The notes under the pieces were generated by a model that ran no database searches, was not told the origin of the DNA, and was given only the letters and a program-made list of their open reading frames with translations. The translations under genes were made by a program, and so were the position numbers. 39,447 bases of DNA from a virus, in the IMG/VR virus record IMGVR_UViG_3300031825_000043, positions 1 through 39,447 of that record; one strand, written 5' to 3'. Shown here piece after piece: positions 2,071 to 38,053 of the stretch; positions within the stretch are counted from its first letter, which is position 1, and every line of letters starts with the position of its first letter.

Positions 2071-2672
2071 TCGGGCTGCGGCAGCTGCTGGTGAAGGTTC
2101 CTGGCGTGTATGCGGAGCTTGGGCGTGCGATGTTGCCGGGTCGCCCGGGCGGTGAGGGTCCGACTTCGAGCCCGGACCCGCGGCATCGGCCGGCGCCGGG
2201 GAATCTGGATGCTGCGGAGCATCGGCACAAGCTGTTGCGTGGTCTGCGCTGGTGGGTGGACGCCGTTGGATGGGATGGTGCTCTGACCGTTGGAGACAGC
2301 CCGGCCCGCATGTGCGCAGTGCTGGCTGGCGTGCTGGACGTGATGGCGCCCGAGGACCAAGAGACCTTGCGAGAGAACCTTCGGGATTGGGTGTCGGATG
2401 CGTGGCCGCTGGTCGGTGACGTACCGGCTCCGTCTGCCCCGGTGCTCCCTGCTGCTGCGTTAGATCGGGTGGTGCCGCAGTCGGTGGCTGCGCAGGCGTT
2501 GGGGTTGCCGTCGTCCACGGTGTGGTCTCGGGCGGGTAAGACGGGTGGGCCGGTGCGGATCCGTGATGTTGCGGGCCGGTTGTGTGTGATGTCTGATCTT
2601 CCGCCGGCGTGGTGCGAACACTGCCGAACGGTTGCGCGTGGTGTGCGTAGTGCAACGCCGGTACTTGCGTAG
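2067..2672 (+). CDS. Putative DNA-binding protein with C-terminal HTH
   Basis: 201 residues from GTG, with a GTGA overlap to the previous stop. The middle region (LLRGLRWWVDAVGWDG) is a helical domain found in uncharacterised actinophage proteins. Near the C-terminus, VPQSVAAQALGLPSSTVWSRA looks like a helix-turn-helix of the kind that reads an operator, followed by a CEHC pair. It is the last gene of the early operon, and its 3' end (2644-2672) contains the first copies of the promoter repeat. It could be a regulator; function unproven. Confidence 0.7.
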   Translation: MIGLRQLLVKVPGVYAELGRAMLPGRPGGEGPTSSPDPRHRPAPGNLDAAEHRHKLLRGLRWWVDAVGWDGALTVGDSPARMCAVLAGVLDVMAPEDQETLRENLRDWVSDAWPLVGDVPAPSAPVLPAAALDRVVPQSVAAQALGLPSSTVWSRAGKTGGPVRIRDVAGRLCVMSDLPPAWCEHCRTVARGVRSATPVLA

Positions 2673-2694
2673 TTGGTGCGTAGTGCGGTAGCGT
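2665..2694 (+). promoter_or_regulatory. Promoter with phased TGCGTAGTG repeats
   Basis: -35 TTGCGT (2665-2670), 18 bp spacer, -10 TAGCGT (2689-2694), expected start near A2702. TGCGTAGTG-type units begin at 2644, 2666 and 2677, i.e. 22 and 11 bp apart on one face of the helix. The same architecture recurs at seven other promoters. No start codon lies at the predicted start site; a structured leader or small RNA follows. Confidence 0.75.
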
Positions 2695-8355: not shown

Positions 8356-8384
8356 ACGATACACACTGCGCAGTGCGTACGCAA
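8356..8384 (-). promoter_or_regulatory. Reverse promoter with three 11-bp phased repeats
   Basis: On the minus strand: -35 TTGCGT (8384-8379), 17 bp spacer, -10 TATCGT (8361-8356). Three adjacent 11-bp units, TGCGTAGTGCT, TGCGTACGCAC and TGCGCAGTGTG, span 8394-8362 without gaps. The 12-bp palindrome CACTGCGCAGTG lies at 8364-8375. Drives the 8348-7786 cassette. Confidence 0.75.
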
Positions 8385-8459
8385 GCACTACGCACCACAT
8401 TTCTCAACACTGCGCGCCAGGTGCGCGCACCCCAAGCGCCAGGAGCGCAGGAGGAAACC

Positions 8460-14056: not shown

Positions 14057-14085
14057 AGACTACGCACTGTCTGCGCAGTGCGCAA
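14057..14085 (-). promoter_or_regulatory. Reverse repeat promoter of 14050-13095 cassette
   Basis: Minus strand: -35 TTGCGC (14085-14080), 17 bp spacer, -10 TAGTCT (14062-14057). Units TGCGCAGACAG and TGCGTAGTCTG are adjacent at 11 bp, with further TGCG copies upstream. The ATG starts 6 bases after the -10. Confidence 0.75.
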
Positions 14086-14147
14086 GCGTTTCGCACCAAC
14101 TTTCTTGGTGTACCATCGCGCGCCCGCGCGCAGTGTAACACCAAGAC

Positions 14148-14177
14148 TTGCGTAGTGGGTGCGTATTCCGGTAGTCT
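14148..14177 (+). promoter_or_regulatory. Repeat promoter of the structural operon (14266 onward)
   Basis: -35 TTGCGT (14148-14153), 18 bp spacer, -10 TAGTCT (14172-14177), expected start near A14185. Units TGCGTAGTG (14149) and TGCGTATTC (14160) are 11 bp apart. It diverges from the reverse promoter about 60 bp away. Its presence before scaffold and capsid suggests extra or separately timed transcription of head and tail genes. Confidence 0.7.
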
Positions 14178-26338: not shown

Positions 26339-26367
26339 ACGCTACCGCACTGCGCAGCACTTCGCAA
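26339..26367 (-). promoter_or_regulatory. Reverse repeat promoter of the secreted-protein gene
   Basis: Minus strand: -35 TTGCGA (26367-26362), 17 bp spacer, -10 TAGCGT (26344-26339). Units TGCGAAGTG (26366-26358) and TGCGCAGTG (26356-26348) are 10 bp apart. AAGCAACTTG at 26378-26387 lies just upstream and matches the sites near 4988 and 35924. Confidence 0.72.
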
Positions 26368-28733: not shown

Positions 28734-28745
28734 CACTGCGCAGTG
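28734..28745. promoter_or_regulatory. Palindromic CACTGCGCAGTG site
   Basis: Perfect 12-bp palindrome made of two overlapping TGCGCAGTG half-sites, identical to that at 8364-8375. It lies about 70 bp upstream of the integrase ATG in the 229 bp region 28665-28893, which has no gene but carries regulatory repeats. A likely operator. Confidence 0.5.
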
Positions 28746-28821: not shown

Positions 28822-28865
28822 GTGCTTACGCATTCACTTCGCAGACTATTCGCACGCACTTCGCA
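28822..28865 (-). repeat. Four tandem 11-bp TGCG repeats upstream of integrase
   Basis: Read on the minus strand the segment is four contiguous 11-bp units: TGCGAAGTGCG, TGCGAATAGTC, TGCGAAGTGAA, TGCGTAAGCAC; the next 11 bases, ACCGCGTAAAT, are a weaker fifth. It is the longest phased run in the genome. No clear -35/-10 pair with 17-18 bp spacing overlaps it, so it may be a regulator loading site or integrase/excisionase arm sites. Confidence 0.65.
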
Positions 28866-29284: not shown

Positions 29285-29725
29285 CTACCCGGCAGTACGA
29301 CGCTTTGCCGCCCTCGCTACCTCAGCATCCACGTGGGCGCGCTGCAACTCTGCGAGCACCTGCTCTCGTTCCTCACGCGGAAGCCCGATGAACCACTCGG
29401 CCCGGTCCTCGACGGTGAGCTGGTCGGACCCTGGCTCAAGCAGCCAGGCGTACTGATCCGGGTTGTGGCCAGCCAGCTCGAGACCACGGCGTACGTCGGC
29501 GGCGATGGCCCGGCACATAGCGGCGACTGTTTCGGCGCGCGGGTGTACAGGAACCCTGATGTCTCCGGCCATCTGTTGGTAGCCGGCCTCGACCTGCCGC
29601 CATCGTGATTCGCTGATGTCTGCTCTGCGTGCGGCTTCCCGAATAGCCATCTTCCCTCGCTGTTCACGGAGGTACTCCCCCAGCGGCCAGGTGCTTTGGC
29701 TCGATGACTTTCGGCGTGGCGCCAT
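29285..29725 (-). CDS. HTH transcriptional regulator, candidate immunity repressor
   Basis: 146 residues. XRE-like helix-turn-helix at about 15-50 (LGEYLREQRGKMAIREAARR, then ADISESRWRQVEAGYQQM), then a middle part AETVAAMCRAIAADVRRGLE and a C-terminal helical end. It is divergent from the early operon with about 200 bp of repeat-rich DNA between, the expected place for a CI-like repressor. No RecA-dependent cleavage (S24) domain is visible, so induction would use another route. The start follows aaaggg. Confidence 0.8.
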   Translation of the reverse strand: MAPRRKSSSQSTWPLGEYLREQRGKMAIREAARRADISESRWRQVEAGYQQMAGDIRVPVHPRAETVAAMCRAIAADVRRGLELAGHNPDQYAWLLEPGSDQLTVEDRAEWFIGLPREEREQVLAELQRAHVDAEVARAAKRRTAG

Positions 29726-29883
29726 TTGTTCGACCCTTTCCGGTGATATCCGCGCGCGTTGTCTTGCGCGTTACGCTTACAGTGTGCACCGAATCCGCGT
29801 TTTGATACATCCGCGGCGCCTGTTTCTATAGGTGACGGAAATGCACTGCGCGGCCGCTGCGCACCTAGTCGGGTGAGTTTCTG

Positions 29884-29922
29884 CGCGTAGTGCTTGCGCA
29901 GCGCGTAGTAGATGCGTAGTGT
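29884..29922 (+). promoter_or_regulatory. Early rightward promoter with repeat operators (genetic switch)
   Basis: -35 TTGCGC (29894-29899), 17 bp spacer, -10 TAGTGT (29917-29922), leaderless GTG at 29930. Two 11-bp pairs overlap it: CGCGTAGTG (29884) with TGCGCAGCG (29895), and CGCGTAGTA (29902) with TGCGTAGTG (29913). Further TGCGC copies near 29845-29860 lie toward the repressor. Best candidate for the lysis-lysogeny switch. Confidence 0.72.
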
Positions 29923-29929
29923 GTGTGTC

Positions 29930-30205
29930 GTGGAGAACACTTCGCAGGACCGGCGAACAGTTGAGCACAGCAGCCTGACTGCTGCCGAACGGTCGGCGCG
30001 TGCGCGTCTCGCGGCCTTGGCCCGGCACTCGCGCACCGATGGTGCGTCGGCCACCGCTTCGGCGCGGGCTGCGTTCCTTCGACGGTTCGAGCGTGAGGTG
30101 GACCCGGACGGGCGCCTCGACCCCGGGGAGCGGGCGCGTCGTGCCGAGCTGGCGAAGCGCGCGTACTTCCAACGGCTGGCGTTCAACCGCCGCAGGGCGT
30201 CCTGA
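29930..30205 (+). CDS. Conserved actinobacterial mobile-element protein
   Basis: 91 residues from GTG, leaderless by prediction. Pattern TAAERSARARLAALARHSRT, then FLRRFEREVDPDGRLDPGER, then ARRAELAKRAYFQRLAFNRR is familiar from small helical proteins carried on actinobacterial phages and integrative elements; their function is not known. As first gene of the early operon it could be a Cro/Xis-like or accessory factor, but no HTH is clear. Confidence 0.72.
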   Translation: MENTSQDRRTVEHSSLTAAERSARARLAALARHSRTDGASATASARAAFLRRFEREVDPDGRLDPGERARRAELAKRAYFQRLAFNRRRAS

Positions 30206-31725: not shown

Positions 31726-32069
31726 GCGATGGGTGGCAGGACGAGGCGCTGTGTCTCGGCGTGGACCCGGTGCGGATGCAGCCCGACCGTGCGACCAGGG
31801 CTGAGGTGGACGAAGCCAAGGGGTGGTGTGGGTCGTGCCCGGTGTTCGATCGGTGCCGGTCGGCTGCGGAGGATCAGTTCCCTGCGGCGTATGGGGTGTG
31901 GGCTGGCCGCTGGTGGGGTGAGGAGCCGGCGTGGGAGGTGGAGCGCGTCTGCGCTTTCGATGGTTGCGGGGTGACGTTTCGGACTCTTGAGTCGGGTCGG
32001 AAGTCGGCGTCGTTCTGTTCGTCCCGGTGTCGTGGTGCTTCGCATCGTGCGAACAAAATGCTTGCGTAG
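31722..32069 (+). CDS. WhiB-like iron-sulfur regulator with extra C-terminal zinc-finger-like domain
   Basis: 115 residues from ATG 31722 (ATGA overlap). Residues 1-65 fit WhiB: Cys11 (ALCLGVD), CGSCPVFDRC with Cys36, Cys39 and Cys45, and a GVWAG turn (58-62), the usual 4Fe-4S ligands and signature. A second four-cysteine module (CAFDGCGVTF...FCSSRC, Cys77/82/99/103) follows, in place of the usual short basic tail. WhiB proteins act with sigma factor region 4 in actinobacteria. It is the last gene before the repeat promoter at 32073. Confidence 0.85.
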   Translation: MSDGWQDEALCLGVDPVRMQPDRATRAEVDEAKGWCGSCPVFDRCRSAAEDQFPAAYGVWAGRWWGEEPAWEVERVCAFDGCGVTFRTLESGRKSASFCSSRCRGASHRANKMLA

Positions 32070-32072
32070 TGG

Positions 32073-32127
32073 TTGCGCGTTGGTGCGTAATGGGTGTACG
32101 TTGTGCGTAGTGGATCACCACTACGCA
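32073..32127 (+). promoter_or_regulatory. Repeat promoter plus perfect inverted repeat
   Basis: -35 TTGCGC (32073-32078), 18 bp spacer, -10 TACGTT (32097-32102). TGCG units at 32063, 32074 and 32084. Immediately downstream TGCGTAGTGG (32104-32113) and CCACTACGCA (32118-32127) form a perfect 10-bp inverted repeat with a 4-nt spacer, showing the unit can also be used as a dyad. Confidence 0.72.
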
Positions 32128-36385: not shown

Positions 36386-36714
36386 TGTTCTACACCGAGA
36401 CGTGGCCCACCGCCCGCAAGGCCCACCGCTGCACCCTGTGCACCCGGACCATCCGGCCCGGCGAGAAGTACCGCCGCGGCGTGGCGCTGGGTGACGGCAC
36501 CGCGTGGACGTTCTGCGAGTGCCTGCACTGCCGGGCCGTCATGGACCTGGCGGACCCCACCTGCGGTGAGTACGAATACTTCGCCGACGTGCTGGTCGAT
36601 TGGGACCCGCAGACCATCACCGAGCTGCGATGGAAAGCGCAGTGGCGCCGCGGCTGGACCCGGCGCGACGGAGACCTGTACCCGGTCCCGACCCGCACCG
36701 AGGCTGCCGCGTGA
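36382..36714 (+). CDS. Zinc-finger-like early protein
   Basis: 110 residues from GTG 36382 (or 109 from ATG 36385), overlapping the previous stop. FYTETWPTARKAHRCTLCTR, TIRPGEKYRRGVALGDG and CECLHCRAVMDLA show two Cys pairs that fit a zinc-binding domain often found in actinophages beside replication genes. The C-terminus is basic (KAQWRRGWTRRDGD). Role unproven. Confidence 0.68.
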   Translation: MMFYTETWPTARKAHRCTLCTRTIRPGEKYRRGVALGDGTAWTFCECLHCRAVMDLADPTCGEYEYFADVLVDWDPQTITELRWKAQWRRGWTRRDGDLYPVPTRTEAAA

Positions 36715-38012
36715 ACACTCCCCCACAGGACCCGGCCGCCGAACAGGCTGTCCTCGGTGCCATGCTGCAGTCCCGCAACGTGCTGCACGACGTGCTGGCC
36801 ATGCTCCGCGGGTCCGACTACTACAAGCCCGCCCACGAGGCCGTCCACGACGCCATCGCCGCCCTGGCCGCCCGCCAGCAGCCGGTGGACGCCATCACCG
36901 TGTCCGCCGAGCTGGGCCGCCGCGGTGTCCTCGAGCGCATCGGCGGGGCACCGTACCTGCACACCCTGATGCAGGCGTGCCCGACGCCGCTGTCTGCGAC
37001 GTACTACGCCGAACAGGTGCTGGACAAGGCGCTGCGCCGCCGCATGATCGACGCCTCCCAGCGGGTGGCCCGTAACGCGGAGGTGGCCGACGACGCCACC
37101 CAGGCCGCGGAGGATGCGCAACAGTGGATCGCTGAGGCCGCCTCACAGGCCCGCACCACCGAGGGTGGCGCGTCGGTCGGTGACGCCCTGGATACGGCCA
37201 TCGACTGGCTGGAGGCCCCGCCCATCGGGGCAGACACCCCGTGGGTGGACGTGAACGAGAAAACCAACGGCCTGCTGGCCGGGCAGATGGTGACCGTTGC
37301 CGCCCGCCCGGGTCACGGCAAGTCACTGGCCCTCAAGGACGTGGCCCTGTTCACCGCCATGCAGGGCAAGCCGGCGCACGTCGCCACCCTCGAAATGTCA
37401 CGCAACGAGTACGTGGCCCGGATCATCGCCGGCATGGGACGCATCGACCTGTCCCGGATGCTGCGCCGCCAACTGTCCGAGGGCGATTGGGCCAAGGTCG
37501 CTGACGCATCCGCCCGGTTGCGGGACCTGCCGCTGTATCTGGACGACCGGGCCGACCAGTCCATGGCACAGATCAGGGCCGCCGCGAGACAGACCGCCCG
37601 CCGGTACGGCAAACCGCTGGGCCTCATCGGCATTGACTACGCGCAGTTGGTGCGGCCGGCCGACCGCCGGGACGTGCGCGAGCAGGAGGTGGCGCAGATC
37701 AGCCGGGACACCAAGCTGATGGCGAAGGAACACGAGTGCCCGGTGTTCCTGCTGGCGCAGCTGAACCGGGGCAACACCCAGCGTTCCGACCACACCCCGC
37801 TGGTCTCGGACCTGCGCGAGTCAGGGTCGCTCGAGCAGGACTCTGATCAGGTGTGGTTGCTGCACCGCCCGGACCAGTACGGCGGGGAACCATCGTCGGA
37901 CCGGTTGGGTGAGGTGGACTTGATCGTGGGCAAGAACCGGAACGGCCCGGCGCCGGTGACCATCCCGCTGGCGTTCCAAGGCCACTACGGGCGCATTGTG
38001 TCGCTGGCCTGA
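36711..38012 (+). CDS. dnaB: Replicative DNA helicase (DnaB-like)
   Basis: 433 residues from GTG (GTGA overlap). N-terminal helical domain (AAEQAVLGAMLQSRNVLHDV). RecA-like motor after about 180 with Walker A ARPGHGKS (198-205), TLEMSRNEYVARII, Walker B LIGIDYAQL (Asp309) and LAQLNRGN, plus SDLRESGSLEQDSDQVW and the arginine-finger region. It unwinds the phage fork. The family motif G-M-G-K-S/T has His at the second place, a common phage variant. Confidence 0.92.
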   Translation: MNTPPQDPAAEQAVLGAMLQSRNVLHDVLAMLRGSDYYKPAHEAVHDAIAALAARQQPVDAITVSAELGRRGVLERIGGAPYLHTLMQACPTPLSATYYAEQVLDKALRRRMIDASQRVARNAEVADDATQAAEDAQQWIAEAASQARTTEGGASVGDALDTAIDWLEAPPIGADTPWVDVNEKTNGLLAGQMVTVAARPGHGKSLALKDVALFTAMQGKPAHVATLEMSRNEYVARIIAGMGRIDLSRMLRRQLSEGDWAKVADASARLRDLPLYLDDRADQSMAQIRAAARQTARRYGKPLGLIGIDYAQLVRPADRRDVREQEVAQISRDTKLMAKEHECPVFLLAQLNRGNTQRSDHTPLVSDLRESGSLEQDSDQVWLLHRPDQYGGEPSSDRLGEVDLIVGKNRNGPAPVTIPLAFQGHYGRIVSLA

Positions 38013-38023
38013 TCGCGTACCGC

Positions 38024-38053
38024 TTGCGCAGTGCGTGCGTAGTGCTGTACTGT
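38024..38053 (+). promoter_or_regulatory. Repeat promoter of the methyltransferase pair
   Basis: -35 TTGCGC (38024-38029), 18 bp spacer, -10 TACTGT (38048-38053), leaderless ATG at 38061. Units TGCGCAGTG (38025) and TGCGTAGTG (38036) are 11 bp apart. Gives the methyltransferase transcription independent of the early operon, for example in the lysogen. Confidence 0.75.

What the first reader, a model, noticed from the sequence alone, without database searches (positions are those of the whole stretch)
2644..2694. Phage-wide regulon of promoters carrying TGCGTAGTG direct repeats phased at 11 bp
Eight intergenic promoters share -35 TTGCGN, a 17-18 bp spacer and -10 TANNNT: forward at 2665, 14148, 29894, 32073 and 38024; reverse at 8384, 14085 and 26367. 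In most, units of TGCGTAGTG (T/C/A allowed at position 5) start 11 bp apart and cover the -35 and the spacer; the 26367 promoter uses 10 bp. Units are adjacent head-to-tail, as for proteins that polymerise along DNA (known for BldC/MerR-like and Xis-like proteins), which is unlike the usual dyad operators of XRE repressors. The promoters serve the early operon, post-WhiB early genes, methylase, accessory cassettes and the structural operon, so one factor could set all of them.
Basis: partly seen in the sequence, partly recalled or inferred. Interest (0 to 1): 0.85.

Follow-up and report, generated by a model that had tools for sequence, protein, structure and literature searches.

The report
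Helically phased repeat operators of phage repressor
A phage of soil actinobacteria carries the same short DNA word, repeated head-to-tail about once per turn of the helix, over all eight of its predicted lytic promoters, and comparison with 20 related repressor loci indicates that the phage's own dormancy (immunity) repressor reads it, so one protein probably keeps the whole virus silent.

Summary
All eight promoters exist at the stated coordinates, and a strict scan (TTGCGN-N17/18-TANNNT) finds those eight and no others in the window (0.35 expected; none expected with two repeat units). TGCGNAGTG-like units lie 11 bp apart 8 times (0.17 expected) and 22 bp apart 7 times (0.28 expected). The same promoters recur at syntenic positions in related phages, including a prophage of Nocardioides sp. 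YR527.

The factor is most likely not a BldC- or Xis-like protein but the phage's XRE immunity repressor (29285-29725). Twenty other loci, chosen only by repressor similarity, mostly carry the same units, 10-11 bp apart, beside the repressor gene and over its divergent early promoter. In about six distant lineages the units point against the promoter, which favours occlusion over activation. The pattern is absent from 215 of 216 Nocardioides genomes. Spread of the operator to all promoters is seen only in the window's clade.

It works like P2 C (direct-repeat operator) combined with L5-type genome-wide sites. Binding, stoichiometry and head-to-tail oligomerisation are inferred, not shown.

The parts
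2644..2694 (+). Promoter-operator: units at 2644, 2666, 2677; -35 TTGCGT 2665-2670, -10 TAGCGT 2689-2694; position after the 2067-2672 gene is conserved
8356..8394 (-). Promoter-operator: units 8394, 8383, 8372; -35 TTGCGT from 8384, -10 TATCGT 8361-8356; leaderless ATG 8348; divergent from the gene before terminase
14057..14085 (-). Promoter-operator, irregular array; -35 TTGCGC, -10 TAGTCT; leaderless ATG 14050
14127..14177 (+). Promoter-operator of the structural operon: units 14127, 14149, 14160; -10 TAGTCT 14172-14177
26339..26367 (-). Promoter-operator of an accessory gene; two units 10 bp apart; -10 TAGCGT
28824..28865 (-). Array of four units 11 bp apart (28865, 28854, 28843, 28832) between integrase and repressor; no promoter recognised; role unknown
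   Evidence: array near the prophage end at G008:C19:65339-65350
29285..29725 (-). XRE/HTH_31 immunity repressor, 146 aa, proposed reader of the arrays
29852..29922 (+). Early promoter PR and operator: units 29884, 29895, 29902, 29913 (+) and 29863, 29852 (-); -35 TTGCGC 29894-29899, -10 TAGTGT 29917-29922; leaderless GTG 29930
29930..30205 (+). First early gene divergent from the repressor, no HTH family match
32063..32112 (+). Promoter-operator of the ERF operon: units 32063, 32074, 32084, 32104; -35 TTGCGC 32073, -10 TACGTT 32097-32102
38024..38053 (+). Promoter-operator after the DnaB-like helicase gene: units 38025, 38036; -10 TACTGT 38048-38053; leaderless ATG 38061, methylase-like ORF follows

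Best explanation
The TGCGNAGTG arrays are operators of the phage's own XRE-type immunity repressor (29285-29725). Each unit is an asymmetric site, probably for one HTH head. Units follow one another head-to-tail every 10-11 bp, so repressors lie on one face of the DNA across the -35 element and the spacer and block RNA polymerase. In this clade the operator, found elsewhere only at the early promoter beside the repressor gene, has spread to every strong lytic promoter (early, recombination, post-helicase/methylase, terminase side, structural, accessory), so lysogeny is held by one protein and its loss would open all promoters together. Shown by computation: sites, phasing, synteny, phage specificity, association with this repressor family, orientation switch. 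Inferred: binding, repression, one protomer per unit, cooperativity, simultaneous derepression.
For: Sites and phasing beyond chance. 25 syntenic promoters in 7 related records, each with at least two units; upstream and spacer units conserved though not used for selection. Pattern in 1 of 216 Nocardioides genomes, only in the prophage, the same genome that has the only strong repressor homologue. Of 21 repressor loci, 16 show [TC]GCG[ACT]AG enrichment upstream at p<=0.05 and 14 at p<=0.0007; spacing peaks at 10 and 11 bp; exceptions carry variant units. Array covers -35/spacer of a divergent promoter; units parallel in the window clade, mainly antiparallel in about six other lineages, favouring occlusion. 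Outside the clade the scan finds such a promoter only beside the repressor. Unrelated repressor (Charlie): none. Repressor modelled as an XRE HTH protein.
Against: No binding data. An array lies outside promoters near the attachment side (28824-28865). phiT46-1 shows no significant enrichment with the strict unit and Squiddly is marginal. Several loci are close relatives, leaving about twelve independent lineages. Only one unrelated-repressor control could be made.
Confidence: 0.83

Rival explanations
1. The arrays are read by a Cox/Apl/Xis- or BldC-like small winged-helix protein (dual excisionase and regulator) that polymerises on direct repeats one helical turn apart, not by the repressor. 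The 2067-2672 product, with an HTH-like C-terminal stretch, would be the candidate.
For: Apl of phage 186 binds 10-11 bp direct repeats both at att and between early promoters (PMC7498355). An array lies on the attachment side in the window and in the YR527 prophage. The 2067 product is conserved in G002/G008 and G003.
Against: No such protein is shared by all motif-bearing phages: the 2067 product has no tblastn match in G004 nor in the phage collection; genes beside the operator differ between lineages while the repressor is constant. Model of the 2067 product is poor.
Confidence: 0.07
2. The arrays recruit an activator (OmpR/PhoB- or SARP-like direct-repeat binder) that turns on these promoters in lytic growth.
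For: 11-bp direct repeats overlapping -35 are typical of OmpR/PhoB- and SARP-type activators (general knowledge; SARP repeats in PMC5930380, seen).
Against: No such gene found among the ORFs scanned; units fill the spacer up to 2-3 bp from the -10; promoter-like -35 and spacing are intact; unit orientation relative to the promoter reverses between lineages; motif absent from host genomes.
Confidence: 0.04
3. A Cro-like early protein rather than, or together with, the repressor reads the same operators.
For: Several relatives have an annotated Cro or HTH gene divergent from the repressor; lambda-type switches share operators (general knowledge).
Against: The window, G003 and the YR527 prophage have at this place a protein without any HTH family match (29930-30205).
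Confidence: 0.04

Closest known systems
P2 C repressor and its direct-repeat operator (PMC4752584)
   Same: HTH immunity repressor binding direct repeats over an early promoter; 22-bp spacing is also enriched here
   Different: P2 has two 8-bp repeats 22 bp apart at one promoter; here arrays of units 10-11 bp apart at eight promoters, other sequence and lineage
L5/TipsytheTRex cluster A repressor with operators and stoperators (PMC9283540, PMC6550527)
   Same: Actinobacteriophage repressor with asymmetric sites throughout the genome
   Different: L5 sites are single 13-mers, mostly not at promoters, in one orientation to transcription, no cooperativity reported; here tandem arrays at promoters
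Apl of phage 186 and other recombination directionality factors (PMC7498355)
   Same: Direct repeats with 10-11 bp spacing at promoters and on the attachment side
   Different: Apl is an RDF; here the constant partner is the immunity repressor
BldC of Streptomyces (PMC5859096)
   Same: Head-to-tail direct repeats of variable number
   Different: 9-bp AT-rich repeats and a MerR-like fold; here 10-11 bp GC-rich repeats and an XRE fold

Membership tests
XRE/HTH_31 phage immunity repressor with cognate operator | XRE-type HTH domain | tested here: met
   HTH_31 E=2.6e-4 though below the Pfam cut-off; PHROG transcriptional repressor 3.1e-7; XRE folds lead the structure search at weak E
XRE/HTH_31 phage immunity repressor with cognate operator | Gene beside integrase and divergent from the early operon; relatives annotated as immunity repressors | tested here: met
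XRE/HTH_31 phage immunity repressor with cognate operator | Confers superinfection immunity and binds the operator | not testable with these tools
   needs bench work
P2 C-like direct-repeat repressor | Sequence homology to P2 C | not tested
   P2 C did not appear among PDB sequence matches or in the listed top 50 fold matches, but no direct comparison was run
P2 C-like direct-repeat repressor | Dimer bridging two repeats 22 bp apart | not testable with these tools
   22-bp spacing is enriched, but oligomeric state is unknown
L5-type stoperator system | Most sites outside promoters, single asymmetric 13-mers in one orientation to transcription | tested here: not met
   Tandem sites at promoters
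L5-type stoperator system | Repressor homologous to cluster A repressors | tested here: inconclusive
   No cluster A repressor structure among PDB sequence matches or the listed fold matches
Cox/Apl/Xis RDF | Small winged-helix protein conserved with the motif | tested here: not met
   No such protein shared by all motif-bearing phages
BldC family | 9-bp AT-rich direct repeats read by a MerR-like wHTH | tested here: not met
   Repeats are 10-11 bp and GC-rich

The most novel reading that the evidence does not exclude
A family of actinobacteriophage XRE immunity repressors binds one protomer per helical turn, head-to-tail along the DNA, on asymmetric direct repeats rather than as symmetric dimers on dyads, and in one phage clade this operator has spread to every lytic promoter, so that lysis is a single all-promoter derepression.
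Probability: 0.5. Interest if true: 0.68.

Novelty: new variant of a known kind. Interest (0 to 1): 0.58.

Why it matters
It gives a predicted operator for a repressor family annotated in Gordonia, Mycobacterium, Streptomyces and Rhodococcus phages; I found no published operator for it in the few paper searches made. It suggests a second route, besides L5 stoperators, to a genome-wide repressor regulon, and offers natural specificity variants (TGCGNAG, TGCGTAC, TACGNAG) for testing how immunity specificity evolves.

Tried and rejected
Host regulator: rejected, pattern in 1 of 216 Nocardioides genomes, only in the prophage. BldC-like binder: rejected on repeat length, composition and lack of a shared protein. 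The 2067-2672 protein as sole regulator: no relatives found in viral contigs or phages by its own search, poor model. Repressor profile in 396 genomes drawn from the phylum: only the YR527 prophage at E<=1e-8. Leaderless ATGGAGACC scan of viral contigs: mostly hits without arrays. Offset autocorrelation in Squiddly and phiT46-1: uninformative because of codon periodicity. Two planned control phages were not in the collection and the Adephagia stretch held no annotated repressor, so only one unrelated-repressor control (Charlie) was made. No tRNA gene was called near the prophage end.

Full report
What was checked. The window is a virus record of 39,447 bases with a phage gene set: SSB, ERF annealing protein, replication/primosomal-type proteins, a DnaB-like helicase (my reading of 36711-38012), terminase, portal, minor capsid, tape measure, tyrosine integrase. 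A relative is integrated in Nocardioides sp. YR527.

TGCGTAGTG with up to one mismatch: 32 against 9.8 expected. Unit pairs at 11 bp: 8 against 0.17; at 22 bp: 7 against 0.28. 18 of 22 perfect units lie in the 10% of DNA that is intergenic, and no canonical TTGACA/TATAAT promoter was found there. Exceptions to strict 11-bp phasing are PR (11, 7, 11), 26367 (10), 32073 (11, 10) and 14085 (irregular).

It is conserved. The same scan over the window, G001, G003, the Nocardioides prophage and L076-L078 gives 25 promoters, all with at least two units; 18 have ATG/GTG 4-9 nt after the -10, so are probably leaderless. Aligned on -35, the unit 11 bp upstream and the unit in the spacer, neither used for selection, still stand out (up to 1.47 bits). 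Positions are syntenic: after the 2067-2672 gene, after the helicase, before the ERF operon, divergent from the gene before terminase, before the scaffold-like gene, and PR, although the proteins are mostly 40-70% identical.

Which protein reads it. The pattern TTGCGNAGTNNNTGCGNANTNNNNTA occurs in 1 of 216 Nocardioides genomes, only in that prophage, so a host factor is unlikely. The same genome holds the only strong homologue of the window repressor in the genus; it lies just outside the IMG/VR prophage boundary. Repressor relatives were then collected by protein similarity alone. Of 21 repressor genes (window included), 16 have the unit [TC]GCG[ACT]AG enriched upstream at p <= 0.05 against random windows of the same locus, 14 at p <= 0.0007; same-strand spacing peaks at 10 and 11 bp. 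Exceptions fit variants: L082/L083 TGCGTAC, prophi102-2 TACG[TA]AG. One unrelated repressor, Charlie, has none.

How it works. In most of the 21 loci a divergent TTGNNN-16/18-TANNNT promoter lies under the array. Units are parallel to it in the window clade but mainly antiparallel in L081, L084, L085, Jace, Holliday/CheeseTouch and GMA1/TinyDot. A site that can be reversed while still covering -35 and spacer fits steric repression better than activation. Scans of whole loci find such promoters at several places only in the window clade; in G004, phiT46-1, L081, L084 and L085 only one is found, beside the repressor, and in Squiddly none under this stricter rule. I infer that the operator was ancestrally local and spread to all promoters in this clade.

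Structure. The AlphaFold model of the repressor (mean pLDDT 83) has an N-terminal helix-turn-helix, a beta-hairpin after the third helix, and C-terminal helices. Fold matches are to XRE DNA-binding domains (2ofy, 5woq, ClgR, DdrO N-terminus), none at E <= 0.001. Oligomeric state cannot be told.

Relation to known systems. Direct-repeat operators are known for P2 C (two repeats 22 bp apart, PMC4752584); genome-wide asymmetric sites for L5-type phages (PMC9283540, PMC6550527); 10-11 bp arrays for Apl (PMC7498355); head-to-tail oligomers for BldC on 9-bp repeats (PMC5859096). The present system combines features of these but meets the defining set of none of them; it is an XRE-type phage repressor with an unusual operator. 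I rate it a new variant of a known kind.

Limits. Everything is computational. Binding, protomer count, cooperativity and simultaneous derepression are inferences. Enrichment p values use random windows that include coding DNA, and several loci are close relatives (G003/L078, Holliday/CheeseTouch, L082/L083, GMA1/TinyDot), so there are about twelve independent lineages. The attachment-side array (28824-28865) is unexplained.

Noticed in passing
window 219, 8346, 28677, 30276, 32132, 38063 and others: A recurrent GGAGACCGAGACC element sits just before start codons or as codons 2-5 of leaderless genes (ATGGAGACCGAGACC), also in G003 and the YR527 prophage; it resembles in placement the start-associated sequences of cluster K mycobacteriophages (PMC3203893), with another sequence.
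   Followed up: partly
window 28824-28865; prophage G008:C19:65339-65350: Repeat arrays on the attachment side of the repressor, without a recognisable promoter; could act on integrase expression or excision.
   Followed up: partly
window 8364-8375 and 28734-28745: Palindrome CACTGCGCAGTG made of two overlapping opposed units.
   Followed up: no
window about 1-125 and the last about 125 bases: The record's ends appear to repeat each other, judging from the shared translated stretch PPAMYAAADAEQPALDGLCQSPSGVTGPVHRP, so it is probably a complete genome.
   Followed up: no
IMGVR_UViG_2684622998_000001 (G002): The prophage boundary in this record cuts off the repressor, which lies about 0.5 kb beyond it in the host contig.
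   Followed up: yes
L088 (Mycobacterium phage prophi102-2), operator next to gp18: Operator units read TACG[TA]AG instead of TGCGNAG: a possible natural specificity change within the same repressor family.
   Followed up: partly
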